A stretch of DNA of 64,000 nt from a virus. Positions 20,756 to 59,106 of this stretch are shown here, piece by piece. The position numbers and the translations under genes are program-made. The stretch spans positions 20,697 to 84,696 of the IMG/VR virus record IMGVR_UViG_3300044712_000792; one strand, written 5' to 3'. The notes below the pieces were generated by a model that saw nothing but the letters and a program-made list of their open reading frames with translations, searched no databases and had not been told where the DNA came from. Numbering within the stretch: position 1 is the stretch's first letter; every line of letters starts with the position of its first letter.

Positions 20756-23700
20756 ATGGTCAAATTAATAGAGGCAGACATTCCTGTTAGAATATTGCTT
20801 TCTGAAGCTAAATTGAGAGATGTATATGAACAATATAAGCTAACAGATGAAGAAAAACTGTATTTTAACCAAATCATTGAAAAACAAAGACATTTACAAA
20901 AATATATGCCACACATAATAAAATTCATCAAAGAGGATGGGTATGCCCCAAGTGTAGTCTTTGAGATATTCAATCTGTTTGAAAAATACAAAGATGTTGT
21001 CCCACATAAAGACTTTATGGATGCTAAATATTATTCTACGCTTTTAGACTTTAGACAAGCAATAAAAGTAGCACAAAGAGAGAAAAAAGCAGCTGTAATT
21101 GGTGGAGTAAACCCTAGTGTTGTTGAACGAATTGAGAATGGATTAAAACAGTTTTCAACAACAACATTTCTAGTTTCTGAAACAGACGAATATTGGGTTA
21201 TTTATATTGGGTCGTTTCCAGCTAGTGTTTATTTCTGTGAAGAACCTAGAAAACAGACATCAAAACTCGGTGGACCTCCTTGGTGTATTGGAGCCCAAGA
21301 AGGCAATTACAATAACTACCATCGTGATTACAAATCGTGTTTTTTGATTCAACCCAAAGATGGATATATGAAAAGCACCATTTTCTATGCTAGTGCTACC
21401 GCTCTTGAAAGAACAGATATTATGAACACAATGCATTATGATGAAGGTCCCTGGCATGGTGTCCTTAAGGTAATCAGAGAAAATGAAATGGTGAAAAAGA
21501 TTTGGGAGGTTAGAAGGGCGCAGCCTAGTCTTGCTATAAAAGATGTATCATTTTTTGTTATATCTGGTATTCCTGTTGGGACAGATTCTATGAAAACAAT
21601 TGAAACGCTAATAGAAAAAGAAGGAATAACTTTAACAAAAGATGAATGGGAGGAAATAAAGAAAAGTCCACAAACAGTTCTATCAAGAATATCATCTTGT
21701 CCTAGTAATAAAGGGTTTTTTTATTGGATAGCTTATGCTGGTATTTGGCCAGAGTATTATGACATTTATTGTAAGGGTAGTGCTAAATTGTATGATTCAA
21801 AACTACCATTCAAATTGAAAGTAGACTTGGTGAAAGCAGGGTCAAATTATGGAACACATTTAATGTATTCGTTTGGGACATTAATGAGCAAACTTGGTGA
21901 CATTAAAGTTGATGATTTTCTTGACGAAGCAACCGTTGCCACACTATTCAACGAGTACAAGAAAGACAATAATAACACTTTAGAACTATTGTCACAACTT
22001 AATTTTGATACAAAGGAAGAAAAACTTATTGATTTCATAAGATTCGCTGTTGCCCACCCAAAACTTCTTCGTTCCCCAGCTACAGCTAATAGTATATTTC
22101 ATGATGCTAATGCCCATCTTGCCCATTTTACAGCAAATTTAATGCTTCAAACACTACAACTGTTAGAAAAAAAGGTTAAAATATCCGATATACTAAAAAA
22201 ATTAGTTCCAGAAACAGATTATGAAACAAAAATTATAGCATATAATTCTATGGGTTTACCTGCTTGGGAGATGACACAAGAAAATTTAGTAAACGGTAGC
22301 ATAGAGGCTGTCGCAGAGATAGAAAAGAATCGTGCAACCCTAAAGAAAGGTTATAGTATAGAGTATTTGAAATTGTATGTGTTTACATATCCAGAGTTAC
22401 TCCCAATACTATTATCGGAACACAATTATGCTCAAACATTTAAGAATTTCTACAATATTACCGCAGAAACTAGAGATAAATTTGTTAAATTTTATGTTTC
22501 TATACCTCAATCTTATAGAGATTTGTTTGAGAAAATACTTACCGATATTGGGTACACTACTGATACGGCATTAGTAGAATCGTTTATGGAAGCTTATAAA
22601 GCAGATGCCTCATTTTTGGATGAAAAACAGATATACACAATCTTTAAACACGCTATTAACAACTATGGTAATGGTTATTTTTCTTGGATTAACGGCCCTT
22701 TACAACAGTTATTTACAGACCCAGCAGTTAAAAACCCTATGAGTAACGCTATAAATTTTTACCCTAGAATATTTAGACCTATTGAAGGAACAGCTAACTT
22801 CAAAAAAATAATACAACAATATAATAGATTTCAAGATGCTGTGCGTTATGCTTCAAGTCATGATGTTAGACCAAGTTCAAGAACTTGGGGTAATAATTTA
22901 ACTTTTGAAATGTTGCAAATGTATACAGACCAGCAACTTACAAATATGTATATGCTAACAAATTATCTTTCATTTAGCCCAGACAACGAAACTACTCAAG
23001 AAGTCATATATATGTTTTCTAATGAAGTAGTTGCTGCATTTGTAGCATCTAACCCAAAGATAAAAGATATTAATAAAGTAGGTCTAATATTTTTCAATTT
23101 AAAAAAACTATTGAAAACAGAAGAAAAAATGTTAGAATACTTAAAATCAAATGTGGTTAATGATGTTATAGCTGATTGTGATTCTCTTGAAGCTCTGGAA
23201 ACACTTGGTAAGTTTGGTGCGTTCCTTATAGCTGCAAATAAAGAAAAGTTTGAAAAATTCCTAGCCGAAACAAAAGAGTGGAGTTCTGGGCTTATAAAGT
23301 ATCTTTTAGCTTTTCAATATGGCACTTTAGATAATGGAGTAATAGATGCAATTTTAAGGCATAAATCGGTTTTTGAAGAAGCGTTCAAAACTAGTACTTT
23401 TAAGGATTTCCCAAATTCGTTAGTCCAACAAGCCTATAATATGTTTTCTTATAATGTTTATCATGGTGGTGGTCTGTCTAATGTTGAAACTATTAAGCTA
23501 TTCCTTTCTATGGATTTTAAGAATTTAATAGAACCATTAGACCTAGCAAAGCAAAACAATTTATGGAATTGGATGGCGTATGCTGTTGGTAGGACTTCTT
23601 CATATAGCAGTAGTATGCCTACTGTTGGTTCTCCTGCTGCGGTAACATCAATAACTAAATTACAAGAAATGGCATTCAAATTACCTAAACTAATAGCATT

Positions 23701-24949
23701 AGCAAAGCAATTAACCCGAATGGAAACATTAAAACGTCAAGATGGTGGGGTTAAAAGACTTTATACCAATATTGATTACATTTTAGCTTTTAGCGAAACC
23801 TTGGAGATAGGGAAAATCCTTTTTGATGGTGTATATGATACCCCTACTATAGATAAAAAATTTGCTAAAGTGGCGAGCCTTAACTTAAAACACCCCGGAT
23901 ATGCTATGTTACATATGCTACACGGAGTAATAAAGGCAGAAGTACTAAAAAGTTTAGATGAATATATGCCAGCGATTATGACAATACTTAAATGGGATTA
24001 TGCAAAACTACAAAATTTGTTGGGTAAAATAAACATATCTGATATAGCAGAAGCTTCACAGAACAATACACTAGAAGAACTCTTGTCAAACCAAGAATAC
24101 ATACACATAACCTTACCAAATTGCTTGTATGATTTACTCCAATTTGCGGAAGATGGCGATTATCATTACGGAATAGCTATAAATGCTATACCAGAGGTTG
24201 GTATTGCAACCTATTCAAACACAGAAGTATCGTTGGTGGCTTTACATAAAACTATTAAATCAAAATCTATTGTAGTAATTTTAAAAAATCATAGGTTTGT
24301 TTTACCTAATAGGAGTAAGGGTAGAAAATCTAGTGATGTTAATATTGTTATTGAAAAATTTAAGGCTAGTATTTCTGATGTAAAGTTTTTTGATAAGTTT
24401 AATGACGATAAGTATAGTGGTCGCATTGAATTAATCAAACATTTAGTTCCAGATAATAGTCAAGAAATAGATAAAGTAGTATCTCATATTTTATCTACTT
24501 GGGATAATTCAATGAAAGGACTTGGCAGGAAAATACAGGTATATGTTATGTTTTATGGGGATTCTAGTGGTATTACGGTTAATAAGTTATTGGTAGATTT
24601 TATAGAGGCGAATCTTAATGCAGGGTTTTTGGGTAGCCTTCTAAATGCATATAATTACTATATGCCAACCATTTCAAAAGAGAAAAAAACAAGGTTCTGG
24701 TATATAGCAGGGTTGGCTTGTGTGTTTGGTGTTAAAAACAATATTGATGTCGCAAAAATAAGTGGATGGACACCAGTCCTTTCACAATTAAAAATGGCTA
24801 GTTTGACATTTGATTTAAAGGATACAATTAAACAGATATTCAATTTGCGAGTTCCGTTACTAACTTCAATAGAGAAGTTAGAAATATCATCAAGTAACAA
24901 GCATGCATTAAAAACTCTTATGAATTTAGAAGGTATAGAACAATGGTAA
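20756..24949 (+). CDS. Giant protein 1 (1397 aa), WCIG-domain family
   Basis: First of three tandem paralogues. The N terminus (KLIEAD, then ILLSEAKL) has two (I/L)-x-E/Ala sites like the T4 capsid-targeting cleavage signal. Residues ~20-60 hold a helical motif (LQKYMPHIIKFIKED); ~130-230 the shared domain with ETDEYWVIYIGSFPASVYF and PPWCIGA (Trp176-Cys177). The remaining ~1150 residues are helix-rich, without recognised catalytic motifs, and align with giant 2. Directly behind a late promoter. I infer a virion-internal or ejected protein; function unknown. Confidence 0.9.
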   Translation: MVKLIEADIPVRILLSEAKLRDVYEQYKLTDEEKLYFNQIIEKQRHLQKYMPHIIKFIKEDGYAPSVVFEIFNLFEKYKDVVPHKDFMDAKYYSTLLDFRQAIKVAQREKKAAVIGGVNPSVVERIENGLKQFSTTTFLVSETDEYWVIYIGSFPASVYFCEEPRKQTSKLGGPPWCIGAQEGNYNNYHRDYKSCFLIQPKDGYMKSTIFYASATALERTDIMNTMHYDEGPWHGVLKVIRENEMVKKIWEVRRAQPSLAIKDVSFFVISGIPVGTDSMKTIETLIEKEGITLTKDEWEEIKKSPQTVLSRISSCPSNKGFFYWIAYAGIWPEYYDIYCKGSAKLYDSKLPFKLKVDLVKAGSNYGTHLMYSFGTLMSKLGDIKVDDFLDEATVATLFNEYKKDNNNTLELLSQLNFDTKEEKLIDFIRFAVAHPKLLRSPATANSIFHDANAHLAHFTANLMLQTLQLLEKKVKISDILKKLVPETDYETKIIAYNSMGLPAWEMTQENLVNGSIEAVAEIEKNRATLKKGYSIEYLKLYVFTYPELLPILLSEHNYAQTFKNFYNITAETRDKFVKFYVSIPQSYRDLFEKILTDIGYTTDTALVESFMEAYKADASFLDEKQIYTIFKHAINNYGNGYFSWINGPLQQLFTDPAVKNPMSNAINFYPRIFRPIEGTANFKKIIQQYNRFQDAVRYASSHDVRPSSRTWGNNLTFEMLQMYTDQQLTNMYMLTNYLSFSPDNETTQEVIYMFSNEVVAAFVASNPKIKDINKVGLIFFNLKKLLKTEEKMLEYLKSNVVNDVIADCDSLEALETLGKFGAFLIAANKEKFEKFLAETKEWSSGLIKYLLAFQYGTLDNGVIDAILRHKSVFEEAFKTSTFKDFPNSLVQQAYNMFSYNVYHGGGLSNVETIKLFLSMDFKNLIEPLDLAKQNNLWNWMAYAVGRTSSYSSSMPTVGSPAAVTSITKLQEMAFKLPKLIALAKQLTRMETLKRQDGGVKRLYTNIDYILAFSETLEIGKILFDGVYDTPTIDKKFAKVASLNLKHPGYAMLHMLHGVIKAEVLKSLDEYMPAIMTILKWDYAKLQNLLGKINISDIAEASQNNTLEELLSNQEYIHITLPNCLYDLLQFAEDGDYHYGIAINAIPEVGIATYSNTEVSLVALHKTIKSKSIVVILKNHRFVLPNRSKGRKSSDVNIVIEKFKASISDVKFFDKFNDDKYSGRIELIKHLVPDNSQEIDKVVSHILSTWDNSMKGLGRKIQVYVMFYGDSSGITVNKLLVDFIEANLNAGFLGSLLNAYNYYMPTISKEKKTRFWYIAGLACVFGVKNNIDVAKISGWTPVLSQLKMASLTFDLKDTIKQIFNLRVPLLTSIEKLEISSSNKHALKTLMNLEGIEQW

Positions 24950-27900
24950 AAAAACTTATTACCGAAGCTAGATTAAGGGATGTTTATACCAAATACAACT
25001 TGACTGACGATGAAAAAACCTATTTTAATAAGGTCATTGAGAAGCAAAAATTTATGCAGAAGTATATGCCACAAATTGTCAAATTCGTCAAACAAGATGG
25101 GGAAGAAGCAGATTTTGTTCTTGATGTATTTAATACATTTGAAAACTACAAGGATAAGGTTGAACATAAGGACTTTTTAGACGAGAAGGCTTACCCAGAT
25201 TTGTATTCGTATAGGGCTGCTGTTAAAAACTTTATGACCACAAAACGAGTAGCATCAAATCCTATCAGAGAAAATGTTGAAAATGGGCTAAACCAATTCA
25301 GCACAACAACTTACCTTGTTAAAGAAACAGATAATTTTTGGCTTATTTATATAGGTTCTTTTCCAGCTAGTGTGTATTTCTGTACAGAACCAAGAAAAGT
25401 AACGGGTCGTCTAGGAGGCTCACCTTGGTGTATTGGTGCTAATGAAAGTAACTATAATGGTTATCACGATGGTGGCAATTTGTGCTTTATTGTAATGTTT
25501 AAAGATACATACGATAAAAGCACCATTTATTATGCAAATAGAAGTGGGTTTACTAGAACAGACATTATGAACCACGCATACAATACTGATGCTGGTACTA
25601 TTTGTGATGGTGTTTATCAGATTATAAAAGCAGACCCTATGGTAAATAAACTGTGGGATGCTAGAAATAAAGTGGGTAACTCAATACCAATAAGTTTTGT
25701 GTCTTCTTTTGTTTTAGCTGGAATGGAAGTATCTTCAGATAAGAATTTGTTATTAGATGCTGTTTTGAAGAAGCACAATATTCAACTTAATGGGGAAGAA
25801 TTAGACCTATTAAAAAGAAGGTTTAGTATCTCTGCTACAACTGTTTTGAATTATATGAGTGAAGCCCCTACTAAAGAAGATTATTGGCATTGGGTTAGAG
25901 TGTCAGCAACAATGCAAGGCCAGGGCCTACTAGTAAGTCGTAATTTGAGTAAGCTATTGTATAATTCAAAAGTTCCATTTTCAGTTAAGAAAAAAATAGC
26001 AAGAGCTCCAGATGGTGGTGCCCCTGATATGTGGTATAGATTTTCATATCTTATATACCCCTTAAATATAGATGACCTTGATTCTTTGTTCCCTGGTGAT
26101 TTGCTATCAGAGTTTATTGAGGCTACTACGCCAACTTTAATGAGAAATGAGATTTTTAATTGGTTTTATGCGAGTGCTGGACTTGAATTTTCAGAGTACA
26201 AAAAAGAAGAACTTATTGGATTACTTGAATTTATTAAAACAAATCCTTCCTTCGTTTCTGCAATTCTTGGTAGTATCAGTAAATTTAGCAAATTTACTGT
26301 TGGGTTATTGCTACAAGCGTTTAATCTTTTATTGAAAAAAGAAGCAAATGTTGATACTATGTTAGATAAGCTAGTTCCTTCTACAGAATATGAAACTAAA
26401 ATATTAGAGATATTGAAGATAGGTTCGTTAAGCACTTGGAAACTAACAAAAGAACAAGTAATGGCCGCCGATTTGGAAGTATTAAAACAAGTAAATGAAA
26501 AAGCAAATATAGATATAATTGTACAATATGGACTATCTCAATCTGCAATTAGATATCTTACACTTAAATACCCTAAAATTATAACAATACTAAAAGAAGC
26601 ACATAAATTTCTTTACAACACAGGTTTTATTGGTGGACAGGGGGAAGAAGAATTTATCACAGGATTATTAAAATTCCCACCAGAACAAATACGGGAGTTT
26701 AACAAAGCATTTGAATCAACAGGCTATTCTATGGATAATGGAATTGCTTATTGTTTGGGTTGTTTATTCAAATCTGATATAAGCTTTTTATCCCCAGAGT
26801 TACAAATTAGTTGTGTGCGCTGGACAATAAATAGCTATGGTAATGAATATTTTTCTTTCAGTAGAGGCTTGTTAAGGAATGTGCCATTTTTTCCAAAACA
26901 GAAAGAGGTTACACTACTCCCTAACATATTTGACCAACCTATTATGATGTTCAAACCAGCAGAAGGAACTGCCAATTTTAAAAAGATTCTAGCCAACTAT
27001 GAGAAATTTCTTAATGCAATTTTTTATGTTCAATCTAGTGGTTTGACATTAAACTATCAGACAGAATTTTTTAGGTCTATGTCATATGAAACCCTCTCAA
27101 TGTATTCAGAATACCAATTAACAAATCTATTTTTGTTATCACCTTATCTATCAAATCAACAAGAAAATGATGAGACCAAAGATGTAGCTTTAAAATACTC
27201 TAGAAGATTAATACTAGCATTCTTGAAAAGCCTACCACGAATCTCAAATATAAACCATGTTGGACCTTTACTTAACAAATTAAAGGGTTTGTTGGGCACA
27301 GAAGAAAAAATGATTGAGTTTATGAGTAGCCATTCTATTAGCACTAATATGATTCACTTGAAAACTATAGAGCAAATGGAAAAACTATCTAGATATGGTA
27401 TGTTTAATTTAACAGCTAGTTATGAGAATATGGAAGCCTTTTTTTCAGAAACAGAAGATATATATGTTGAAGTGGCTAGATATATGAAATTGTCAGGCAT
27501 TTCAGAACTAAACAATTCGGTTATTACAGAAGCATTAAAAACTATTGGATTGTTCAGAACTGAAGTTAAAAAAAGCAACTTTTTGAAGCTATCTCCGATA
27601 AACTTTAATGCCGTAAACGCTTTTTGGTTAAATATGGTGTATAAAACAAATTCTAATTATATTTGGCTAACTGAACATATTAGCTTATTTTTCAGTATGG
27701 ATTTTGAACGCCTAGACCGTATGGCACCAGAATTTGTTAAACCAAACGCTTTTGCTGGTTGGCTACAAAGTTTCTATAATGGTGGGAATCTTTGGAATGC
27801 TGGGGACGAGAAGGCAAAATCTGCAATAGAAAATGCCTTAAATTATTTAGAATCCGTAATGCCAATCAGAGAGATGTTTAAAAAGTTGGGTGTGACAAAT

Positions 27901-29160
27901 TATTCAAATGATGGGTCTTCTGGGGCTTCTAGGGTATTAAAATATGGTAAATTTCTATTAGACACCTGGGAAAACGATAAAGTAACTACAACCATCATTA
28001 AAAATATACACGCAAATTCTTATTCTACATCTTGGATGCCAATTGTTGAAAAACTTCTTCCACAATTAAAGCACCCTAGTTATGCCTTTCTACCGCTTAT
28101 CTTTTCTGGTGATGTAACTACCGAATCCATAATAAAAATTAATGACATTATGCCAATTCTTGTGGAAAAAACTAACTATGACTATTCTAAACTTTTCTCT
28201 TTGTTACAGCATTTGACTACTGAAGAGATAAAAGAAGCTATTGCTAATAACACATTTGATGATATTATTGATATTACAAATTATAGAAAAATTATATTAC
28301 CTAGTTGGCTTGGGGGTATAACAGTAATAAGTGAAACAGATGATTTTATCTATGGTATTGCCTTCAAAACGCTTAATCCACTTATCACACACCCTTCAAC
28401 AAGAGATAAAATAAATCTTGTTGCAATACACAAAAGTTTACCAAATAAAAGCGTATATGCTATTTTGGAAAACCATGTTATTACCTTGCCTGCTGGAAGC
28501 ACAATAGACCCAATAGACCTTCAGCCTTTGATTAAAGAGTTCAAACATATGTTAAGTCAAGAACATATCATTAAGAAGTTGATTTCAGCAGGTTACCCTT
28601 CTTATATTAGTGCTATATACCCTAACGACTTGGCAACAAAAGAAAGAATATGTAAATTTATCTTCTCCAATAGTCTTAACAACAACTTTATGATTGATAT
28701 GGCTAACAAAATTGCTCTGTATATTTCTATGTACTACAAAAGTGGAGAACTCGAAATAAATAAAATGCTAATGGACTATTTAGAAGGATTGGTAACTAGA
28801 AGTGATGCCCCAAGTGGACACATTGACACTATGCTAGGTGGTAGTCAATATTATAAGCCAAATATGGAGTCTTCTAAAAAAACACTCTATTGGTTTGTTT
28901 GTTGTCTTGCTATACTGTTGGGCATTAAAAACGGCATAGACATACGAACTAGAACTGCGTTTGATAACTATTATAACTACTTAAGGCCTAGTTTTCTTAC
29001 TATGGACGGTAGAAGTATAATAAAGGATATGTTTGACCTTAAACCTCCCATTTTAGATTCAATAGATAACTTGGTTCTCCCGGGTAACGAAGATACAAAT
29101 ACCCATAATAAAGGCGTCATTAAAATGCTTTTGGGCTTGGAAGGAATTAAAGAATGGTAA
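24943..29160 (+). CDS. Giant protein 2 (1405 aa), WCIG-domain family
   Basis: Starts within the last codons of giant 1 (shared ATGGTAA). N terminus MVKKLITEARLRDVY, with I-T-E/A after residue 8. It aligns with giant 1 along its length: QKYMPQIVKFVKQDG, QFSTTTYLVKETDNFW, GGSPWCIGANES (Trp162), VPSTEYETKILEI, FKPAEGTANFKKIL, and the end LEGIKEW versus LEGIEQW. Giants 1 and 2 are closer to each other than to giant 3. Probably an extended helical-repeat body behind a small N-terminal domain; no enzyme signature seen. Confidence 0.9.
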   Translation: MVKKLITEARLRDVYTKYNLTDDEKTYFNKVIEKQKFMQKYMPQIVKFVKQDGEEADFVLDVFNTFENYKDKVEHKDFLDEKAYPDLYSYRAAVKNFMTTKRVASNPIRENVENGLNQFSTTTYLVKETDNFWLIYIGSFPASVYFCTEPRKVTGRLGGSPWCIGANESNYNGYHDGGNLCFIVMFKDTYDKSTIYYANRSGFTRTDIMNHAYNTDAGTICDGVYQIIKADPMVNKLWDARNKVGNSIPISFVSSFVLAGMEVSSDKNLLLDAVLKKHNIQLNGEELDLLKRRFSISATTVLNYMSEAPTKEDYWHWVRVSATMQGQGLLVSRNLSKLLYNSKVPFSVKKKIARAPDGGAPDMWYRFSYLIYPLNIDDLDSLFPGDLLSEFIEATTPTLMRNEIFNWFYASAGLEFSEYKKEELIGLLEFIKTNPSFVSAILGSISKFSKFTVGLLLQAFNLLLKKEANVDTMLDKLVPSTEYETKILEILKIGSLSTWKLTKEQVMAADLEVLKQVNEKANIDIIVQYGLSQSAIRYLTLKYPKIITILKEAHKFLYNTGFIGGQGEEEFITGLLKFPPEQIREFNKAFESTGYSMDNGIAYCLGCLFKSDISFLSPELQISCVRWTINSYGNEYFSFSRGLLRNVPFFPKQKEVTLLPNIFDQPIMMFKPAEGTANFKKILANYEKFLNAIFYVQSSGLTLNYQTEFFRSMSYETLSMYSEYQLTNLFLLSPYLSNQQENDETKDVALKYSRRLILAFLKSLPRISNINHVGPLLNKLKGLLGTEEKMIEFMSSHSISTNMIHLKTIEQMEKLSRYGMFNLTASYENMEAFFSETEDIYVEVARYMKLSGISELNNSVITEALKTIGLFRTEVKKSNFLKLSPINFNAVNAFWLNMVYKTNSNYIWLTEHISLFFSMDFERLDRMAPEFVKPNAFAGWLQSFYNGGNLWNAGDEKAKSAIENALNYLESVMPIREMFKKLGVTNYSNDGSSGASRVLKYGKFLLDTWENDKVTTTIIKNIHANSYSTSWMPIVEKLLPQLKHPSYAFLPLIFSGDVTTESIIKINDIMPILVEKTNYDYSKLFSLLQHLTTEEIKEAIANNTFDDIIDITNYRKIILPSWLGGITVISETDDFIYGIAFKTLNPLITHPSTRDKINLVAIHKSLPNKSVYAILENHVITLPAGSTIDPIDLQPLIKEFKHMLSQEHIIKKLISAGYPSYISAIYPNDLATKERICKFIFSNSLNNNFMIDMANKIALYISMYYKSGELEINKMLMDYLEGLVTRSDAPSGHIDTMLGGSQYYKPNMESSKKTLYWFVCCLAILLGIKNGIDIRTRTAFDNYYNYLRPSFLTMDGRSIIKDMFDLKPPILDSIDNLVLPGNEDTNTHNKGVIKMLLGLEGIKEW

Positions 29161-32100
29161 GAAAACTTATTACCGAAGCGTCTCTTAAAGAATGGTATGC
29201 TAAATTTGGCGTTACTGCTGATGAAAAAGCTATTTATGATGATATAATAGCTAAACAACCATATATGCAAAAGTATATTGGCAGAATTGTAAAATGGCAT
29301 AAAGTTGATAGAGAAAAGCTAAAGGATATTATTGACAACCTAATCAAGTTTGATGAGAACATTAAGAATATTGCAGATAGAGATATATACTCAAAGAAAT
29401 ATGAGTTCCTAGATGCAGTAAAAGAAGTCATTGAGAACCTACCAAAATGGTTTGATAGGCTTAATATACCGAAAGAGTTTGAGAAGATATTGGCAAGACA
29501 CCCTAAAGATGCCTTTAAACTCACAGAAACAGCCGATTACTTCGTGTTCTATATAGGGTCATATGATGCCTCTACCGACCTTTGTTATTACCCAAGGCTT
29601 TATACTGACTATTTACTATCAATTCACACTCCTAGCACAAATAATGGTTGGTGTATAGGACAGCCTAATACTAGAGGCTTCTTTGACGGACAGAGGGGTT
29701 CAGATGGGTTATATTTCCTAGTTCAATATAAGACCACTTTCAAAAAAAGCTGTATCTATATTCTTCATTCTGATGGTAGTTTCCGTAGGCATAATGTCCA
29801 TAATTACCCTGGTAGTGGTTTTCCTGATGAACAAGAACCTGGTATAATGAAGATGGCATTTGACGACGAAAGGATAGTGAAAATATTTGCGGAACAAAAA
29901 AGGTATGCTTATCGTATGATTATAGATTTCATCTCTTGGAAAGTTATTGGTGGTATGGAAATCAAAAGTGATTTTGATGTATTACTAAATGTCCTAAATG
30001 ACAAATATCAACTTGGTTTGACGGATGAACAAAAAGCAAAATTAAAAGATTTTAATGCAACATTAAACTCTGGTGCGTGGACATCTTCTAGAAACATAAT
30101 CAATAGAATTTCGGCACATCCCAAGATAGAAAGATATTTCTTATGGATGTCTGCTGGTTATGGCGATTATACTTTAGACAAACCAGTAATGGCGTATTTT
30201 GAAATGATTTATAAGTGTAAAAACCTTACTAATGATATGAAACAGCAACTTACTAATAGACCTGCTGGACACATTAAATTAAACCAAGATATTACCTATG
30301 ATGACCTTATAGCTAGCCCAGAAACTCAAATACCTGTAGATAACTTAAAAGACTTTTACAGTTTTGTTCTACCATATATAGACAAGAGTGATAAAACTAA
30401 TCTACCTAAAGCGGTTTTACTTTATAATAAACTTATTGGGGAGGGTAGAAGGGATAAATTTATTGATGATAGTGGTCGTTTTATGGTTAGAGGACTTAAT
30501 GTTGACTTGTTAATTTCTTTATTTGAAGCTGTTCTAGAAAATCCAAGGATACTTTTTAAGACTTGGGCTAAAGAAACAACCCCAAACAATGACTATGAAA
30601 ACATTATACTTGAGATTATAAGAAAAGATTTGTTTAGAGGAAAGCCTTTAACCCCAGAAGTTATTAAAGCACTTGATATTTCAATGATTGATTCTATGAA
30701 AGAGAAACTAGGAACAGTATTTTCAAGTACAAGTATGATTAATGACGCCTTATATTTCTTTTGTTTATTCCCACAAACTTCAGATAATTATAAGATATTT
30801 TCTCATATAGCAAGAAATTACCATGATGTTCCTTATGAGGATATGAGAGATTTGTTGAATGTTTTGACACCACAACAAATAAAAGAATTCAATTATTGTT
30901 TAGACCCAGACCATTTTGGATATACTTACGATAAAGATATGATGAGAAGGATATATGTTATCTTTGGTGCTGAACAAAAAGAGTTCCCCACAGATGTAAC
31001 AAGGCGTTTGATGCAAGCAGGTTTAACTAAAAGTAATGGGAGTTGTTTTGCAATTGCTTGTAAAGAAATATTAGGAATGACCACCACAGCCTCATCAGTT
31101 TTAAATACAACATTAAACAATAGTCCTATGGAATATATAACAGTTAATACATATAAAAGGGCTAAAGTTGTTGCAGAAAAGATTGTTGGTTCTTTGAGTT
31201 TAATCCCCGGCACTATTTCCTTTAGGTTTAGTAGTAACTGTAGCTTCTTTAATATTGACAATGTGTTAGCATTAAAAGAGCAAGAATTGGCTAATGCTAT
31301 AATCTATTCTAGCGGTATTCCAGGGGAATCAGTTTATTTAATGCCGTTCTTGAGAGAGTTTTCACCTGAATTTATTGCTACACTAATAGATTTACAAAAT
31401 AATAGTTTGGATATAGAAGACTATTATGTTGCTCTAGAGGTCTTCTTGAACTTAAAAAAGATACTAGTTGAAGAAGAAAAAATATTAAAATTTTTAGGGA
31501 CAATAAATAGACTTGATAGTTCCTTATTGCTAGCAAGTACTGTTGAAGAATTAGAACAAGCAAAATTGTTTGTTGGTATTGCTATGTCTTTCCCAGATGT
31601 AGAGACAAAGAAAACATTATTGAAGGCTATTGCTGGTGCTGAAAAAGAATTGTTATTTGCCTTTAAGGTTCACAGTCTAATACTAACGAAAGAAGTTATT
31701 GACCTGTTCTTAAGCAAAAAAGAGGAGTTAATAAAAGCATATAACAATAACTTCATTTTCAATTGTGAGTATAGTGGAGATAAAGCTAAACAGAAAATAT
31801 CCCGTTTTTTTATGCCTATGATTAATACATATTTACACAATTTTTGGACAAACTACTATAATCCAGAATACATAAATGCATTAAATAACTTTGATTTTGA
31901 AAAAACATATCCTATTTTGATGAGTATATGTGGTGGTTCAATAAGGAATTCTTCTTGCCCTCTAATTAGTGCTTTTGTCCCTGGCACTGGAACTTTAGTC
32001 GGAACACTAGAAAAAAACCTTAAAAAATATGAAGAATTTGTATTAACACAAGCAGAGAAATTGAATGTATTAATTAAAAACTCAAAATTCAGCGGTATAT

Positions 32101-33284
32101 TACTTACTTCTGGTGATAGGAATACTTATAGAGTGATAAAATATGCGGATTGGATTATAACATATTCTGATACTACAGTAATTAATACTGTGTTATATTA
32201 CATTATGTATAGTACACAAAGTTCTATAGATGACACCATTAATTTGCTTGCAACGGCTGGAATTAAGCATCAAGGCTATGCCGTACATCACACCATCCGA
32301 CCATATCTTGATAATATAGAACTCATTAAAGGTCTTGATAGCTTCTTACCAGAGATATTCAAAGAATTTAGTTTCTCATATGATTCAGACACAGAAAAAA
32401 GTTCAATGTTTGCACAATTATTACGAACAAAAACAGCACCAGAAATTATAGAAATTATCAAAGAAAAGGGTGCTGTTGAAAAGGCTGTAAGAGAATCAGC
32501 ACAAAAAAGCTATAACGAAGCCATTAAGGAAACATTAAAGGGTAATGTGATATTTAAGGAAACAAATGAGAATCTGTATGTTTATAGGTTGGCTACTTCA
32601 AACAATTTGATATTTAAAAAGCATGCTGGTAGCTTGCCAGATATTTCACAAGAATATTTTTCATTTATGATTGTAAACAAGGAAAACGAGATTGAGAATT
32701 GTCATTATCAAATGGGTTCAGATTTAAGACTTAAGCAAACATCTAACACAGCTTGTTCTGTTTCTGGGGATTTGAAAACATCTTTTATAGAATGGGCACA
32801 AACACCAGAAGGTTTTAGTATAGTGTTAGCAACCCCAATAAGAAGCGATGTGTTTATGGCTGTGTATGGCAATAACAATGAACTAGTTATGGAAAAAATG
32901 CTAGCTTTAGAACTCTATGTTTCTGTTAGCTTTGATGATTGTATGTCAATATTCCAGTTGATAAGAGGACAAAAAGTGGTGGATGATGAATTGATGAATT
33001 ACCTTATGGAGAAGGCTGATGTTAAACAGACATATAGAAAGGCTACTGATGGATTGCCTAACAAAGCATTTTATGTTGATTGTGCTGTGATTTGTTGTAT
33101 AGCTAGGAACGACGCTAGTACTAATATTGATGATGTTAAAACGGCATTATCACCAAGAACTGATTTTGATGCAATAGCAATGAAGGTATTTGATGTGCCA
33201 GAAATAACAAATGCTGTCATAGATGGATTACACCTTGACGATGACCACAAGGCTATGTTAAGAAAAATGAGAGCTAACTTTTAG
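29154..33284 (+). CDS. Giant protein 3 (1376 aa), WCIG-domain family
   Basis: Again begins in the preceding gene's last codons (ATGGTAA). N terminus MVRKLITEASLKEWY, QKYIGRIVKWHKVD, LTETADYFVFYIGSYDAS, NNGWCIGQPN (Trp166). The body is more diverged from giants 1 and 2 but keeps the TTPNNDYENIILEI segment at the matching place. It ends without the GI(E/K)(Q/E)W tail. Its last 11 bases overlap the convergent baseplate hub gene; no terminator is visible between them. Confidence 0.9.
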   Translation: MVRKLITEASLKEWYAKFGVTADEKAIYDDIIAKQPYMQKYIGRIVKWHKVDREKLKDIIDNLIKFDENIKNIADRDIYSKKYEFLDAVKEVIENLPKWFDRLNIPKEFEKILARHPKDAFKLTETADYFVFYIGSYDASTDLCYYPRLYTDYLLSIHTPSTNNGWCIGQPNTRGFFDGQRGSDGLYFLVQYKTTFKKSCIYILHSDGSFRRHNVHNYPGSGFPDEQEPGIMKMAFDDERIVKIFAEQKRYAYRMIIDFISWKVIGGMEIKSDFDVLLNVLNDKYQLGLTDEQKAKLKDFNATLNSGAWTSSRNIINRISAHPKIERYFLWMSAGYGDYTLDKPVMAYFEMIYKCKNLTNDMKQQLTNRPAGHIKLNQDITYDDLIASPETQIPVDNLKDFYSFVLPYIDKSDKTNLPKAVLLYNKLIGEGRRDKFIDDSGRFMVRGLNVDLLISLFEAVLENPRILFKTWAKETTPNNDYENIILEIIRKDLFRGKPLTPEVIKALDISMIDSMKEKLGTVFSSTSMINDALYFFCLFPQTSDNYKIFSHIARNYHDVPYEDMRDLLNVLTPQQIKEFNYCLDPDHFGYTYDKDMMRRIYVIFGAEQKEFPTDVTRRLMQAGLTKSNGSCFAIACKEILGMTTTASSVLNTTLNNSPMEYITVNTYKRAKVVAEKIVGSLSLIPGTISFRFSSNCSFFNIDNVLALKEQELANAIIYSSGIPGESVYLMPFLREFSPEFIATLIDLQNNSLDIEDYYVALEVFLNLKKILVEEEKILKFLGTINRLDSSLLLASTVEELEQAKLFVGIAMSFPDVETKKTLLKAIAGAEKELLFAFKVHSLILTKEVIDLFLSKKEELIKAYNNNFIFNCEYSGDKAKQKISRFFMPMINTYLHNFWTNYYNPEYINALNNFDFEKTYPILMSICGGSIRNSSCPLISAFVPGTGTLVGTLEKNLKKYEEFVLTQAEKLNVLIKNSKFSGILLTSGDRNTYRVIKYADWIITYSDTTVINTVLYYIMYSTQSSIDDTINLLATAGIKHQGYAVHHTIRPYLDNIELIKGLDSFLPEIFKEFSFSYDSDTEKSSMFAQLLRTKTAPEIIEIIKEKGAVEKAVRESAQKSYNEAIKETLKGNVIFKETNENLYVYRLATSNNLIFKKHAGSLPDISQEYFSFMIVNKENEIENCHYQMGSDLRLKQTSNTACSVSGDLKTSFIEWAQTPEGFSIVLATPIRSDVFMAVYGNNNELVMEKMLALELYVSVSFDDCMSIFQLIRGQKVVDDELMNYLMEKADVKQTYRKATDGLPNKAFYVDCAVICCIARNDASTNIDDVKTALSPRTDFDAIAMKVFDVPEITNAVIDGLHLDDDHKAMLRKMRANF

Positions 33285-36632: not shown

Positions 36633-36653
36633 TATTTATCCTTTCAAATTATA

Positions 36654-41632: not shown

Positions 41633-41635
41633 CTA

Positions 41636-42703
41636 TTATTTCCTTGCTTTAAGTATTATATTACGTTGCCTTACTGATGCATGTTCTTTTCCGTATTTTG
41701 TGAGTTTAGCCCCATTGTTTATTAAAATGTCAATAAGGTTATCATAACCCTGATATATTACCCAATCCAACAATGTCTTACCTTCATATTTTGTATTTAC
41801 ATCGCCACCGTTTTTCAGCATTATTGAAAGTGCCCAACTATTTGTGTTTGTTATAACTAACTTTGTTAATAGTGGTTGACTACCAACCTTCATATTAGGT
41901 ATGTCTACCCCATTGGTTTTAGCGGTTTTAACAATATTTTCAATAATAATAACAGGTAAATAATGCACAAGAAGATAATAAAATTCCATTGGAAATTTTG
42001 CCGCTAAAAATGCGTATACTTGTTCTGGCACTTCTTCCAAATTATCCACACCATCAACATAGTTATTTCTATCAAAGAATAAAACACTTTCATCGCTAGA
42101 TATGTTAATAAAATACATAGTATAAAGGTCTTTTTTGTTTTGACATAGAATCAAATGTTCGTCTTGGTCTTGAACATATTCATAAAACCAATTTCTATCA
42201 ACATCAGGAATACCAATACAAAAAGCACTAACCTTTTTATCACTAGACTTTTTAGCATATTCCCTTTGTGGTTGCCCAAAAAAGATAGCAGCTTCAGGCT
42301 TAAACAGGTCTATAAAGTAATAATCTTTTGTTTCAAATAACAACTTTGCTTCAGATGGAAATTTCTTAAGTCCAATACCCACAAAATCAGCAGGACTTTT
42401 AAATTTGTTAAGCTGTTCAAGAATTTTTTGTTCTGCTGTCTTGAAATCAGAATACATTTTGTTGCTTATATCTTTAACTAAAAGCTTTGGGTTGTTCTTG
42501 TTTTGTTCCAATACTTTTATGAAATCAGTTATATTGTCCATTTCAATCTTTTGCGTTTTATGCCATTCAGCAATCCTAGCAAAATATTTATGCTGAATAC
42601 CAGTTGGGTCCAGGTCCTCATATAAACTAATTTCTCTAGGAGTTAGGTTAAACTTCTTAATAGCATTTTTTACAATTGCGGATTCTACTATGTATTGTTT
42701 CAT
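41636..42703 (-). CDS. WCIG-type domain protein fused to ankyrin repeats (355 aa)
   Basis: N terminus MKQYIVESA has I-V-E before Ser, like the giants' N termini. Then YEDLDPTGIQHKYFARIAEW, ETKDYYFIDLFKPEAAIFF and SAFCIGIPD (Cys162) place it in the giant-protein family. Residues ~268-345 are ankyrin repeats (MLKNGGDVNTKYEGKTLL, ILINNGAKLTKYGK). It thus joins the two accessory families of this phage in one chain. Overlaps the next ankyrin gene by four bases. Confidence 0.82.
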   Translation of the reverse strand: MKQYIVESAIVKNAIKKFNLTPREISLYEDLDPTGIQHKYFARIAEWHKTQKIEMDNITDFIKVLEQNKNNPKLLVKDISNKMYSDFKTAEQKILEQLNKFKSPADFVGIGLKKFPSEAKLLFETKDYYFIDLFKPEAAIFFGQPQREYAKKSSDKKVSAFCIGIPDVDRNWFYEYVQDQDEHLILCQNKKDLYTMYFINISSDESVLFFDRNNYVDGVDNLEEVPEQVYAFLAAKFPMEFYYLLVHYLPVIIIENIVKTAKTNGVDIPNMKVGSQPLLTKLVITNTNSWALSIMLKNGGDVNTKYEGKTLLDWVIYQGYDNLIDILINNGAKLTKYGKEHASVRQRNIILKARK

Positions 42704-43248: not shown

Positions 43249-43661
43249 TCCGTTGGCCTATAATATTTTATTACCAAGCTTGAAATCCTTTGTGGGAGAT
43301 AACTATTAGCATAATCAGCATCTTGTTGTCTTACAATCGCACCAGCTTCCAACAATAATGAGAGAACAGCTAGTCCATCTGGGTTTTCAGTCCTACCAGC
43401 CAATAACATTTCCAATGGTGTACATTGACCAACAGATTCTTTGTTTACATCTAACTTCAATTCTTCCTTATGCTTTAATAAAAAAAATATGAGCTTATAT
43501 ACTTGGTATTTTATCGTGCTAGTCAATATAGTATTTCTAAAATCATATTCGTTTTGAGCATTAACATCACCACCAAGTTCAAGATAGGTGATTAACTTTA
43601 GAAAAGCACTTGGACTTTTCTCCATTATTGCGTCAAATAATTCAACTTCTGTTTTCTTCAT
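43245..43661 (-). CDS. Ankyrin-repeat protein (138 aa)
   Basis: Repeats: YLELGGDVNAQNEYDFRNT, KHKEELKLDVNKESVGQCT and LLLEAGAIVRQQD. The start at 43661 shares one base with the stop of the gp6-like gene (TAATG) and has GGAG upstream; the frame is open 16 codons further into that gene, which is less likely. Confidence 0.8.
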   Translation of the reverse strand: MKKTEVELFDAIMEKSPSAFLKLITYLELGGDVNAQNEYDFRNTILTSTIKYQVYKLIFFLLKHKEELKLDVNKESVGQCTPLEMLLAGRTENPDGLAVLSLLLEAGAIVRQQDADYANSYLPQRISSLVIKYYRPTE

Positions 43662-46333: not shown

Positions 46334-46335
46334 TG

Positions 46336-46881
46336 TTACTCCTTATATAATATTCGGTAGCCACTAGATGTTAATTTTGCATTATAATAATCTTTCCACA
46401 TATCCGTATTCATTAGGTCTTTAACACGCTTTTCTCCAGCAAGCTTAAAGAACAAATCACGTCTTTTTAAGGCTTCTCTACTATTTAAAGCTATAAATAT
46501 ATTGGTTAATTCCCTCAAATAAGTATCTATGTGGTTATCTATATCAGCCTTAACCAAATCTGGATACATATTGCAGATTCGTTCGGCTAGAGTGCTCGTG
46601 GATATAAACAACAGAAATCTAAAAGCATTAGAAGTAGCACAACGAACTTTAAATGTATCAAAAAGCCCTGTATCAATTTCTGTAAGATGTTCAAGAATAA
46701 AACGAGTAACTACTGATGGTGAGTCAAGGTCTGGGTCGCCATTTATACCACCTAATCTCATCATAAAATTACTACAATCACCATTATAGGCGGATAGCTT
46801 TTTCCCAGACTCTAGATAAGTGATTAAATAGTATAAGCTATCTCTTCTAATTACTTCGTCTAATGCTTCTCTATCAGTCAT
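46336..46881 (-). CDS. Divergent ankyrin-family protein (181 aa)
   Basis: The N terminus (TDREALDEVIRRDSLYYLITYLESGKKL) parallels the next gene and the first unit of the ankyrin genes (residue-poor helix then YLESG). Later repeats are too degraded to call ankyrin by eye. Paralogue of 46874-47440. Function unknown. Confidence 0.6.
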   Translation of the reverse strand: MTDREALDEVIRRDSLYYLITYLESGKKLSAYNGDCSNFMMRLGGINGDPDLDSPSVVTRFILEHLTEIDTGLFDTFKVRCATSNAFRFLLFISTSTLAERICNMYPDLVKADIDNHIDTYLRELTNIFIALNSREALKRRDLFFKLAGEKRVKDLMNTDMWKDYYNAKLTSSGYRILYKE

Positions 46882-47440
46882 TTTTTATACCCATTAATAT
46901 TTTAGTCCATTTCTCATATGTGTCTGGTAACATCTTATCTTTAAATAACTCAAAAAAACTTACTAATTTTTCGTTTCGTGTCCTTAATAAGTGTTGTGGT
47001 ATTAAAGAGAAAAGCAAATTCACTCTCACATCTGTATTGTTATCAGGGTCAAGACCCGCATGATTATTTAAATAGTGACACTCATAACCAAAATAAGAAG
47101 TGAAATCAGTTTCTATATTTTGTGCCACAACGCTTTTATATTGACTCGCAATAAGTTTAGCACAGCTAGCCTTCTTACACAAAAACAAAAAGTATCTAAA
47201 TGTTGACGATGTGTTGCAAGTAAAACCAGAAAATTTACCAAACAAATCAATACCCAATTCAGTAGCATATCGTATAGAAAAATGAGCCAAATTATCAGCA
47301 CTATTAACATATGCCATTATTGGAAAATTTGAGCATTGGTCGTCAACTACATTTAGTTTTTTCCCGGACTCTAGATAAGCTATGAACTTAACTAGACTTT
47401 TCCGTTCTATGATTTTGAGTAATTCTTCTCTATCCGCCAT
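46874..47440 (-). CDS. Divergent ankyrin-family protein, paralogue (188 aa)
   Basis: Aligns with the preceding entry: MADREELLKIIERKSLVK, YLESGKKLNVVDDQCSNF versus YLESGKKLSAYNGDCSNF, and STFRYFLFL versus NAFRFLLFI. The start at 47440 shares bases with the protease gene's stop (TGATG); the frame is open eight codons upstream. Likely a local duplication. Confidence 0.6.
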   Translation of the reverse strand: MADREELLKIIERKSLVKFIAYLESGKKLNVVDDQCSNFPIMAYVNSADNLAHFSIRYATELGIDLFGKFSGFTCNTSSTFRYFLFLCKKASCAKLIASQYKSVVAQNIETDFTSYFGYECHYLNNHAGLDPDNNTDVRVNLLFSLIPQHLLRTRNEKLVSFFELFKDKMLPDTYEKWTKILMGIKND

Positions 47441-48363
47441 CAGCCCAATCCCATAATAACCCAAGGACTAAAAGTATAATCTTGGTAGAATTGAAACGGC
47501 ATAAAGTAGTAACCACCTTTACCCCATGCGTTTCCCCAACTATTACGAACCTTAAAGTATTGAGTGTCTAAATCATATCCTACCAATACTGTGCAATGTC
47601 CTCCTTGGTTCTTTTCATCTGAACTAGGCATTTCCAATATACCATCATTAAGTATCTTTGTGCTTGTAATTGAATTAAAACAATATTGCCCAAATATAAC
47701 TGGAACTCCTTTATCTAACATAGAACAAGCCTGGGCTACATCATTTTCATTTAGCTTTAAGTACTTATTAATCTTGAAGTTAGCACCATCAGCATAGGCT
47801 TCTTTAGTTGGTTGTGTTTTCCATAATTTCAATTCATAAGGCCAAATTGATTCTACGCATACTCCATATTTTTGACAAGCCTTTAAAGCATCTCTTACAT
47901 ACATACCGCTATCTTCATTGACAGTTCCCATAATCAATCTACCATTGTAATATACATACAATCTACTTCTATCAATAAAAGTATTATCAGTCTTTTCATA
48001 TAGTTCAATAGCACCTACTATTGATTGTGCTACGCAAGAACCCAACTCACCTTGGTTCTCTATCATTGAAAATTTAGGTGTTAAATCTACTTGCCTCTTA
48101 ATAACAGTAGTAGGCTCAAGCATAACTTGGTCAGCATACAAATCCCTTGAGTCAATAGGGTCTGGGTGGCAAGCAAATACCCATTTAGCATCTGGGTTGG
48201 TTAAAAGTAAATATAGAAAGGCTGCTTCTTGTGCTAACCTTTCTTCTCCAGGAAATATTTGTTCTAAAGGTATCTTGTTCTCAATAGCAATCGTGACGAA
48301 CTTCTTAATAGTATCCACTTCTTCTTGGGTGAAGCCATAATGATTTTCAGGGCCATAAGGCAT
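47440..48363 (-). CDS. Papain-like (C1) cysteine protease
   Basis: The full papain triad and oxyanion residue are readable in family order: NQGELGSCVAQS (Gln104, Cys110), GGHCTVLVGYD (His256) and VRNSWGNAWGKGGYYFMP (Asn274). The first ~90 residues form an unrecognised, possibly propeptide-like, region. No signal peptide is visible. AGGAGG precedes the ATG. A C1-type peptidase inside a baseplate gene run is unusual. It could process virion proteins, degrade surface proteins or act after ejection. Confidence 0.88.
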   Translation of the reverse strand: MPYGPENHYGFTQEEVDTIKKFVTIAIENKIPLEQIFPGEERLAQEAAFLYLLLTNPDAKWVFACHPDPIDSRDLYADQVMLEPTTVIKRQVDLTPKFSMIENQGELGSCVAQSIVGAIELYEKTDNTFIDRSRLYVYYNGRLIMGTVNEDSGMYVRDALKACQKYGVCVESIWPYELKLWKTQPTKEAYADGANFKINKYLKLNENDVAQACSMLDKGVPVIFGQYCFNSITSTKILNDGILEMPSSDEKNQGGHCTVLVGYDLDTQYFKVRNSWGNAWGKGGYYFMPFQFYQDYTFSPWVIMGLG

Positions 48364-48378
48364 TTCAACCTCCTTTAG

Positions 48379-49395: not shown

Positions 49396-49396
49396 C

Positions 49397-50860: not shown

Positions 50861-50863
50861 AAT

Positions 50864-51400
50864 TTAATCTCCTATAATTGGTTTATTGGGGCGCATTACA
50901 ACGCAATAATAAGGTATGACTCTTAATTGTGGTAAGCCGTCTAGCATTATATTCTCTACCGTTGTAATATTATTGAATACATTTAAGAAATTGCTATGAC
51001 CAGTTCCAGCTATCGTTAGCTTAAGCCAATAGTAGTTTGTTGTAGTCCAAACTGTTGTAGGTATCCAAGATGTTGCTGAAGATGTTGGGAATGAAATAAC
51101 TCCACTATTGTTAAATCCAGAAGTGGTATCTGTAATTTGACCGGCAGTTATTGTAGTCCAAGAAGGTGTGGTTCCATTTTTATAATATTTTACTACTAAC
51201 CCTGACAAAGTTGCTGTGTAACTTTCAAGCCAAAAATAAGTTCTGTAGAAAGGTGTAGGTCTCCCAATATACAAATCTAAATTCTTATTAAATTCAACAT
51301 AAGCAGTATTATTTGTGGTTAATAAAGCGGTAGACCAATCTGTGTAAACTGTTTCGTATATGTTAGTTACAGCTATTATTTTAGTGCTTTGGTCAAACAT
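50864..51400 (-). CDS. Tail protein with jelly-roll-like domain (178 aa)
   Basis: KYYKNGTTPSWTTIT, ITDTTSGFNNSGVISF and NYYWLKLTIAGTG fit the same module as in the 49397 protein: aromatic 'W-x-x-Leu/Ile', Asp-Thr-Thr, Ser-Gly-strand, then YxWLK. The module is common in phage tail and baseplate proteins. Overlaps the PAAR-like gene by one base. Confidence 0.62.
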   Translation of the reverse strand: MFDQSTKIIAVTNIYETVYTDWSTALLTTNNTAYVEFNKNLDLYIGRPTPFYRTYFWLESYTATLSGLVVKYYKNGTTPSWTTITAGQITDTTSGFNNSGVISFPTSSATSWIPTTVWTTTNYYWLKLTIAGTGHSNFLNVFNNITTVENIMLDGLPQLRVIPYYCVVMRPNKPIIGD

Positions 51401-51648
51401 TATATGCTCACTATAACTTTAGTTTGAGTGGAAATCATAGTTCCAGCAGAGGTAGTACACCCCATATATGCAACTGGTTTTCCTCCAACTAATATCTTAA
51501 CACTACCTTGAGTTATTGTAGCAGAACCGCCAGTATCTCCCATTAAAGCAACAGGTATTCCACTTATGGTAAATTTTGTTAATGCACTAGGAGTCCAACT
51601 TGTATTACCTGAAGTGTCTTGGTCTGTCTTTACACAAACATTTGGCAT
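51400..51648 (-). CDS. PAAR-like spike-tip protein (82 aa)
   Basis: Residues ~25-80 match the PAAR-like/DUF4280 pattern: FTISGIPVALMGDTGG, then VKILVGGKPVAYMGCTTSAG. PAAR proteins form the sharp tip on gp5/VgrG spikes. The length of 82 aa suits a minimal tip. It likely caps the spike at 35679. Confidence 0.72.
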   Translation of the reverse strand: MPNVCVKTDQDTSGNTSWTPSALTKFTISGIPVALMGDTGGSATITQGSVKILVGGKPVAYMGCTTSAGTMISTQTKVIVSI

Positions 51649-51659
51649 ATTAAATCCTT

Positions 51660-52385: not shown

Positions 52386-52387
52386 TG

Positions 52388-53371
52388 TCAACTCCTCATA
52401 TATTCTGCAACAAAATTATCTATTGCTCTCTGTGTAAATCCACATTCTGAAACTAACAGTTTTAGAAATTCAATAATCTCCTTTTTTTCTGTATCATAAG
52501 CAGTTAGAGCATATTCAGATGTAACATCTAAAATCTTTTTCTTATAATTTGTGAAAATGGCTTTATTTAATACATCTTTATAATCCAACGCCTCTATGTA
52601 CGACCTTAAATATGAAAAGTCATTTTCTTCTAACACTAACTCTAATATGTATGAAAACAGTTTTGTTTTTTTAACTCGTTTTATACTAGGAGTGTAATCA
52701 TCATCCAAATTCCAATCATCATTATTTGAATCCCAAAAAAATATCACAACATCTAAACCATCTTCAAATGAGATTTCAAAAACTCCGCAATCCTCTATTT
52801 TAGTTAAGGATTGGACAAACACAAATGCACTATACATTGAATCGCCTCTAAATGTATAAGAAGCAAACATATTATGTTTATCGGGTCTAGCTATACACCA
52901 TTTTGAAGCTTCACTCAATGTAATGGCTTTATCCTTAAGCAACCTTTGAACACTACCATAATAAATGGCTTCTTCTTTTGACCTTAATGGGATAAAGGCA
53001 CAAGAACCCTCAACCCAATTAACAGAATTGAATTTTTTGATTCCTTCCTTTATAAAAGCTTCTGGGGTTGGTGGCAGACCTGTTGCTTCAGCTAAAATTT
53101 CCCTTGTTTTTTCCATATCATCATATATAGGGTTGTTAATATCTTTCTCTTTGAGTTTTGGACTATTCTTAAGCCTTTCAAAAAACAATATAGTTTGTTG
53201 TACTGAATCTTGTTGTTTTCCTTTTAAATACCAAAAACACATCCTATCCAAATACTTTTTTGTTGGGGTGGGGTCCAGGGTGGCTAGGTATTTAATAGTC
53301 CCAAGTGATATATTTTTACCAGAATATTTTTTAGCCGCTTGTTCTATTCTACTTTCTAGTAATATTTCCAT
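52388..53371 (-). CDS. WCIG-type domain protein (327 aa)
   Basis: N terminus MEILLESRIEQAAKKY has L-L-E before Ser. Then LDPTPTKKYLDRMCFWYLKG, a motif common in uncharacterised phage proteins, and ASKWCIARPDKHN (Trp158-Cys159) in the place of the giants' WCIG. The C-terminal ~80 residues are helical and may be decayed ankyrin repeats. First gene of the leftward late unit, 66 bases behind the late-promoter box. Probably a short relative of the giant proteins. Confidence 0.78.
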   Translation of the reverse strand: MEILLESRIEQAAKKYSGKNISLGTIKYLATLDPTPTKKYLDRMCFWYLKGKQQDSVQQTILFFERLKNSPKLKEKDINNPIYDDMEKTREILAEATGLPPTPEAFIKEGIKKFNSVNWVEGSCAFIPLRSKEEAIYYGSVQRLLKDKAITLSEASKWCIARPDKHNMFASYTFRGDSMYSAFVFVQSLTKIEDCGVFEISFEDGLDVVIFFWDSNNDDWNLDDDYTPSIKRVKKTKLFSYILELVLEENDFSYLRSYIEALDYKDVLNKAIFTNYKKKILDVTSEYALTAYDTEKKEIIEFLKLLVSECGFTQRAIDNFVAEYMRS

Positions 53372-56476: not shown

Positions 56477-56479
56477 GAA

Positions 56480-59079: not shown

Positions 59080-59092
59080 GATATTTGAAACT

Positions 59093-59106
59093 AAAAGAAT
59101 ATAAAC
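59093..59106 (+). promoter_or_regulatory. Late promoter candidate, rightward (fibre unit)
   Basis: AAAAGAATATAAAC, identical to the box at 53470-53483, 47 bases before the ATG at 59153. It lies in one of the few gaps of this block. Confidence 0.65.

What the first reader, a model, noticed from the sequence alone, without database searches (positions are those of the whole stretch)
20756..53371. Five late proteins begin with a T4-like capsid-targeting and prohead-protease cleavage sequence
Seen: giants 1-3 (20756, 24943, 29154), the 355-aa protein (41636-42703) and the 327-aa protein (52388-53371) all start with a short peptide containing (I/L)-x-E before Ala or Ser: LLSE/A, LITE/A, LITE/A, IVE/S, LLE/S. 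Known: T4 internal proteins IPI-III and Alt carry an N-terminal capsid-targeting sequence cleaved by prohead protease gp21 after (L/I)-x-E (IPIII MKTYQEFIAE/A; Alt MELITE/L). The resemblance to MVKKLITE/A is close. Inference: these five proteins are packaged into the head, cleaved and ejected with DNA. This would be a new family of very large internal proteins.
Basis: partly seen in the sequence, partly recalled or inferred. Interest (0 to 1): 0.88.

Follow-up and report, generated by a model that had tools for sequence, protein, structure and literature searches.

The report
Capsid-cargo leaders on jumbo-phage proteins
Five proteins of an uncultured phage, three of them very large, belong to one widespread family of giant phages; each starts with a short tag like the one phage T4 uses to load proteins into its head and then cut off, so they are probably packaged and delivered into the host, although no one has yet seen them in a virus particle.

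Summary
The motif is real at all five places, but the five proteins are paralogues, not independent cases: a profile built only from other phages picks exactly these five from the contig (E 8e-23 to 1e-4; next 4e-3). The family is widespread in jumbo phages and has no Pfam name. Across 44 members the residue just before the first helix is Glu in 36, with Leu/Ile two residues earlier in 40: the L/I-x-E specificity of T4 gp21. All ten relatives with an S77 (gp21-type) prohead protease have Glu there; three with a terminase but no S77 do not. In four S77 phages the major capsid protein also starts with such a leader, and in two of them the leader sits on many unrelated proteins. A PA5oct member, encoded beside the terminase, was reported in virions by mass spectrometry. 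This supports a capsid-targeting, protease-cleaved leader. Packaging, cleavage and ejection are not shown; this 84.7-kb fragment holds no protease, capsid or terminase gene; the function of the giants' large C-terminal part is unknown. It extends a T4 mechanism to an unnamed cargo family.

The parts
20756..20806 (+). G1 leader, MVKLIE|ADIPVRILLSE|, two L/I-x-E sites in tandem
   Evidence: aligned P1 Glu
24943..24966 (+). G2 leader, MVKKLITE|
29154..29177 (+). G3 leader, MVRKLITE|
42683..42703 (-). p355 leader, MKQYIVE|
53354..53371 (-). p327 leader, MEILLE|
20756..24949 (+). G1, 1397 aa, giant family member
   Evidence: 32% identical to G2 over its whole length; outside-family profile E 4.8e-6
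24943..29160 (+). G2, 1405 aa, giant family member
   Evidence: outside-family profile E 1.3e-10
29154..33284 (+). G3, 1376 aa, giant family member
   Evidence: outside-family profile E 4.5e-7; matches p355 at 4.7e-9
41636..42703 (-). p355, 355 aa, family member with a weak ankyrin match at its C-terminus
   Evidence: matches p327 at 4.6e-14; Ank_2 E 0.0014, below the curated cut-off; outside-family profile E 1.1e-4
52388..53371 (-). p327, 327 aa, family member closest to the outside relatives
   Evidence: outside-family profile E 8.2e-23
24943..25671 (+). N-terminal domain of G2 (residues 1-243): helical part followed by a beta part with the Trp-Cys-Ile-Gly motif
   Evidence: AlphaFold2 model, mean pLDDT 81; alignments A1 and A6

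Best explanation
The five proteins are cargo of the phage head. Their first 6-17 residues act like the T4 capsid-targeting sequence: they dock the protein on the prohead core, and a gp21-type (S77) prohead protease encoded on the missing part of the genome cuts after L/I-x-E, leaving the mature protein to start at Ala or Ser. The released proteins stay in the head with the DNA and enter the host at infection. Behind the leader sits a shared adaptor (helical part, then usually a Trp-Cys-Ile/Thr beta part that may be PcfJ-like), and the variable C-terminal part is the effector; in relatives it is ankyrin, LRV/HEAT, pentapeptide or DUF4116 repeats, or a PARP-type ADP-ribosyltransferase. Shown: motif, homology, conservation of the site, its co-occurrence with the S77 protease, and the same leader on capsid and other proteins of relatives. 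Inferred: targeting, cleavage, ejection, effector role, and the presence of the protease in this phage.
For: (1) Homology: a profile from 39 non-window members ranks exactly these five first among the contig's ORFs. (2) Site: in 44 members P1 is Glu in 36, P3 is Leu/Ile in 40, P2 is free, P1' is mostly G/D/S/N/A; T4 gp21 cuts after L/I-X-E (PMC9026906). Leaders vary in length but end in the same site, and several carry two or three sites in tandem, as reported for propeptides of phiKZ. (3) Co-occurrence: all ten S77-positive phages have Glu; three with a terminase but no S77 (a 257-kb and a 336-kb contig, Caulobacter phage CcrBL9) have Ala, no leader, or Lys, Fisher p=0.0035. (4) Major capsid proteins of S77 phages start MSNRLFE|S (PA5oct), MANLFE|N (SCTP-2), MGALLE|S (321-kb contig G019), MSANAKFLNE|A (LR756511). 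(5) Leaders M[KR]..[LIF]xE| are enriched in SCTP-2 (29/430 against 11/1692 internal, p=9e-13) and G019 (18/323 against 10/1251, p=5e-7), on 17 unrelated protein groups each, and not in S77-negative G022 (1/234 against 8/888). (6) The PA5oct member EST35_0205 is annotated as found by ESI-MS/MS and is encoded right after the large terminase subunit. (7) By summed protein similarity the nearest of the six compared genomes is LR756511, which is S77-positive.
Against: The contig holds no S77 protease, T4-type capsid protein or terminase, so the enzyme is not shown for this phage. No mature N-terminus is known for any member. The PA5oct mass-spectrometry list also flags an ssDNA-binding protein and a UvsX-like recombinase, so detection is not proof of packaging. 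The crude leader test is weak in PA5oct (p=0.03) and not significant in LR756511 (p=0.2) or in T4 itself (p=0.1). Three further large S77-negative contigs have no recognised head gene, and one of them (L169, 194 kb) keeps Glu. Related genomes are not independent samples.
Confidence: 0.7

Rival explanations
1. The leader is a docking peptide only: the proteins bind the prohead core or another virion part through it, and no cleavage takes place.
For: In T4 IPIII targeting and processing depend on different residues of the leader, and Asp at P1 blocks processing but not targeting (PMC9026906). No processed N-terminus is known here.
Against: Glu at P1 is the most conserved position around the start of the alignment apart from the Leu/Ile at P3, while P2 is free and leader length varies; P1 changes in phages without S77; several sites occur in tandem. 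A pure docking peptide would not need this pattern.
Confidence: 0.15
2. The motif is simply the N-cap and first turn of the domain's first helix, kept for folding; the proteins are ordinary cytoplasmic phage proteins.
For: The AlphaFold2 model of G2 starts helix 1 at residue 2, across the motif, and the helix after the motif is itself conserved.
Against: Confidence is low in residues 1-5 of the model. Ala, Lys or nothing is tolerated at the site in S77-negative relatives with the same domain. The same kind of leader occurs on unrelated proteins and on capsid proteins.
Confidence: 0.1
3. Chance: L/I-x-E is common near N-termini and was noticed because the paralogues share it.
For: Background is about 15% for L/I-x-E and 2% for L/I-x-E-[AS]; the five share ancestry; other late proteins of the window match too.
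Against: Conserved in 36 of 44 diverged members at the aligned position; co-occurs with S77.
Confidence: 0.05

Closest known systems
T4 internal proteins IPI-IPIII and Alt with the capsid-targeting sequence cut by gp21 (PMC9026906)
   Same: Short N-terminal leader ending in L/I-x-E before a small residue; in S77 relatives many unrelated proteins share it; one relative (L156) carries a PARP-type ADP-ribosyltransferase domain behind the leader, as Alt is an ADP-ribosyltransferase.
   Different: No Pfam or PHROG match of the window proteins to the T4 proteins; the giants are far longer than the T4 internal proteins; protease and capsid genes are not on this fragment; virion location is not shown.
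Ejection proteins of phiKZ-like phages SPN3US, phiKZ and 201phi2-1 (PMC5694885, PMC9026906)
   Same: Giant-phage head cargo with N-terminal propeptides cut after x-x-E by a gp21-related protease, some with several sites.
   Different: Their motif is A-x-E or S/A-x-E and several SPN3US propeptides exceed 100 residues; here L/I-x-E and 6-17 residues.
Phage P1 DarB (PMC9024508)
   Same: Very large (250 kDa) protein packaged by an N-terminal signal of fewer than 30 residues.
   Different: No common leader among the Dar proteins was found by BLAST in that study; no sequence link was tested here.
PHROG families phrog_17056 and phrog_28193 (unknown function), with PA5oct EST35_0205
   Same: Twenty and sixteen of 29 aligned members match these families; the window proteins belong to the same superfamily by profile.
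   Different: The giants are 1,376-1,405 aa in tandem; the window proteins themselves do not match these two families.
Polyvalent proteins of phages and conjugative elements (PMC5512222)
   Same: Proposed to be packaged and injected, mixing domains such as ADP-ribosyltransferases; one relative matches ART-PolyVal weakly, another PcfJ weakly.
   Different: The window proteins show no recognised polyvalent-protein domain; an N-terminal leader of this kind was not mentioned in the passages read.

Membership tests
T4-type capsid-targeted, gp21-processed cargo | N-terminal leader of about 10-20 residues ending in L/I-x-E | tested here: met
   6-17 residues, sites aligned across the family; three of the five leaders are shorter than 10 residues
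T4-type capsid-targeted, gp21-processed cargo | The phage encodes an S77 (gp21-type) prohead protease | tested here: inconclusive
   None on the 84.7-kb fragment, but capsid and terminase genes are missing too; present in ten relatives with the site
T4-type capsid-targeted, gp21-processed cargo | The protein is inside the virion head | not testable with these tools
   Only indirect: PA5oct member annotated ESI-MS/MS
T4-type capsid-targeted, gp21-processed cargo | Mature N-terminus right after the Glu | not testable with these tools
   No proteomic data on N-termini for this phage or a relative were found
T4 IPI-III/Alt by homology | Sequence match to these families | tested here: not met
   No such Pfam or PHROG match
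Jumbo-phage leader-adaptor family (related to phrog_17056/phrog_28193) | Match to a profile built without window proteins | tested here: met
   Five best hits of the contig, E 8e-23 to 1e-4, next 4e-3
Jumbo-phage leader-adaptor family (related to phrog_17056/phrog_28193) | DPT...KY, KDIN..Y and WC[IT] motifs | tested here: met
   p327 and p355 have DPT and KDI(N/S); the giants keep KY, K(D/N) and WCIG but lack DPT; p355 has FCIG
PcfJ-like (PF14284) | Score above the curated cut-off | tested here: not met
   One relative, L164, 20.8 bits against 25; structural hits with prob 0.75-0.84 but low TM-score; none for window proteins
Polyvalent proteins | Several recognised effector domains in one chain | tested here: not met
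   No Pfam domain in the giants

The most novel reading that the evidence does not exclude
Jumbo phages with T4-type heads carry a large, modular, sequence-predictable cargo: a cleavable L/I-x-E leader, a shared adaptor domain and interchangeable effector domains, which in this lineage has grown into three tandem proteins of about 1,400 aa delivered into the host; in relatives with another head type the cleavage residue has switched (Glu to Ala), so leader and head protease evolve together.
Probability: 0.45. Interest if true: 0.78.

Novelty: new variant of a known kind. Interest (0 to 1): 0.62.

Why it matters
If true, the proteins that jumbo phages carry into the host could be listed from sequence alone by their leader, including ADP-ribosyltransferase-like and repeat proteins now filed as hypothetical, and the three giants would be among the larger head cargo known. 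It gives direct predictions for cultured phages (PA5oct, SCTP-2) that one proteomics run can test.

Tried and rejected
Baseplate protein in genome contigs: no relative, host unknown. Two contigs related by the baseplate protein (L004, L005) hold neither the family nor S77. PDB fold search of the N-terminal model: nothing below E 0.3. AlphaFold2 of the giants' C-terminal 1,153 residues: pLDDT 43, not used. HK97-type and XkdF-type prohead proteases in the S77-negative relatives: no match over the curated cut-off, so their protease is unknown. A later start in G1 was rejected (GTT at codon 11). A first Fisher test with six large S77-negative contigs (p=0.0014) was replaced by the stricter one limited to those with a terminase (p=0.0035).

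Full report
Observation. The window is part of an 84,696-base virus record with contractile-tail genes (baseplate wedge, sheath stabiliser, hub). G1 carries two sites in its leader, MVKLIE|A and LLSE|A, and cannot start at codon 11, which is GTT. L/I-x-E near a start is common by chance (about 15%), L/I-x-E-[AS] is not (about 2%).

One family, not five cases. G1 and G2 are 32% identical over their length, G3 matches p355 at 4.7e-9, and p355 matches p327 at 4.6e-14. They share an N-terminal domain of about 250 residues, modelled with mean pLDDT 81. The viral fold search pointed to jumbo-phage proteins, among them a PA5oct structural protein. A profile search then found the homologue in PA5oct, EST35_0205, and one in the 595-kb phage LR756511. 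With the PA5oct protein as query, 63 viral-contig loci were found, and three more with the LR756511 protein. A profile built from 39 members without any window protein ranks exactly the five window proteins first on the contig (8e-23, 1.3e-10, 4.5e-7, 4.8e-6, 1.1e-4; next 3.8e-3).

The site is conserved. After removing near-duplicates and correcting starts, 44 members align. P1 is Glu in 36, Ala in 5; P3 is Leu or Ile in 40; P2 is free; P1' is mostly G, D, S, N or A. The leader before it runs from a few to about 30 residues or more and often holds two or three such sites. T4 gp21 cuts after L/I-X-E, the T4 leaders target proteins into the head, and phiKZ propeptides hold redundant sites (PMC9026906).

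It goes with the T4-type head. The S77 (gp21-type) protease is present in PA5oct, SCTP-2, LR756511 and T4 and, over the curated cut-off, in ten of 26 viral contigs with the family; some of those contigs are near-copies of one phage, so seven of them plus PA5oct, SCTP-2 and LR756511 make ten distinct S77 phages. All ten have Glu at P1. The T4-type capsid protein (phrog_138) was sought in eight of them and found in all eight. Three relatives without S77 have a terminase, so their head genes are not simply missing: P1 is Ala (257-kb contig), there is no leader (336-kb contig), or it is Lys (CcrBL9). Fisher p=0.0035, without correction for ancestry. Three other large S77-negative contigs show no recognised head gene and were set aside; one keeps Glu.

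Capsid and other proteins carry the same leader. Major capsid proteins (phrog_138) start MSNRLFE|S, MANLFE|N, MGALLE|S and MSANAKFLNE|A. In SCTP-2 and the 321-kb contig G019 such leaders are enriched over internal-Met controls (p=9e-13 and 5e-7) and sit on 17 unrelated groups each; S77-negative G022 shows none of this. The test is weak or not significant for PA5oct, LR756511 and T4, where few proteins carry the leader.

Modules. Relatives place different C-terminal parts behind the shared N-terminal part: LRV/HEAT, ankyrin, pentapeptide and DUF4116 repeats, and in L156 a PARP-type domain (E 2e-6). L156 and L119 are 85% identical over the first 137 residues and then differ, PARP in one and Trp-Cys plus ankyrin in the other. 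p355 has a weak ankyrin match. The giants' C-terminal part has no match and no usable model.

Conclusion. A capsid-targeting, protease-cleaved leader on cargo proteins is the best-supported reading (about 0.7). What is missing is direct evidence: virion location, mature N-termini, and the protease gene of this phage. PA5oct EST35_0205 was flagged by mass spectrometry, but so were proteins of DNA metabolism in the same list.

Noticed in passing
window 17897-18349, 19462-19992, 36654-37594, 42700-43709, 46336-47464, 53975-54400, 55976-56956, 58519-59764: About thirteen short paralogous ankyrin-like ORFs are interleaved with the tail genes on both strands; one (58519-59079) matches Ank_2 at 3.7e-22.
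   Followed up: partly
window 47440-48363 (-): Papain-family (C1) cysteine protease gene within the tail cluster (Pfam 1.3e-15), with homologues in LR756511 (157 bits) and G022.
   Followed up: partly
L023, L027, L032, L038 (Salicola phage SCTP-2): Many SCTP-2 proteins carry MK(I/V)..LxE leaders, including a tandem group at 209-214 kb and a protein at 103 kb that look by eye like ADP-ribosyltransferases; not tested.
   Followed up: partly
L189-L193 (321-kb contig G019): A set of small proteins starts with near-identical leaders such as MSKIIRLTE|NDLIRLVNKVIKEQ or MKYIITE|SQL.
   Followed up: partly
L139, L140, L145, L150, L158: Relatives without a detected S77 protease have Ala in place of Glu at the site (VIEA|S, FLEA|A, LRIA|G, IRIA|G); their head protease was not identified.
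   Followed up: partly
L119 and L156: Two proteins 85% identical over 137 N-terminal residues differ completely afterwards, one with a Trp-Cys domain and ankyrins, one with a PARP-type domain: apparent effector swap.
   Followed up: yes
window 8211-8432 (+): A 73-aa early-region ORF starts MKFQKLILITEANLYL; probably a chance match to the motif.
   Followed up: no
window 51400-51648 (-) and 13612-13685 (+): PAAR-like spike-tip protein (phrog_281, 2.6e-6) and a tRNA-Gln gene.
   Followed up: no
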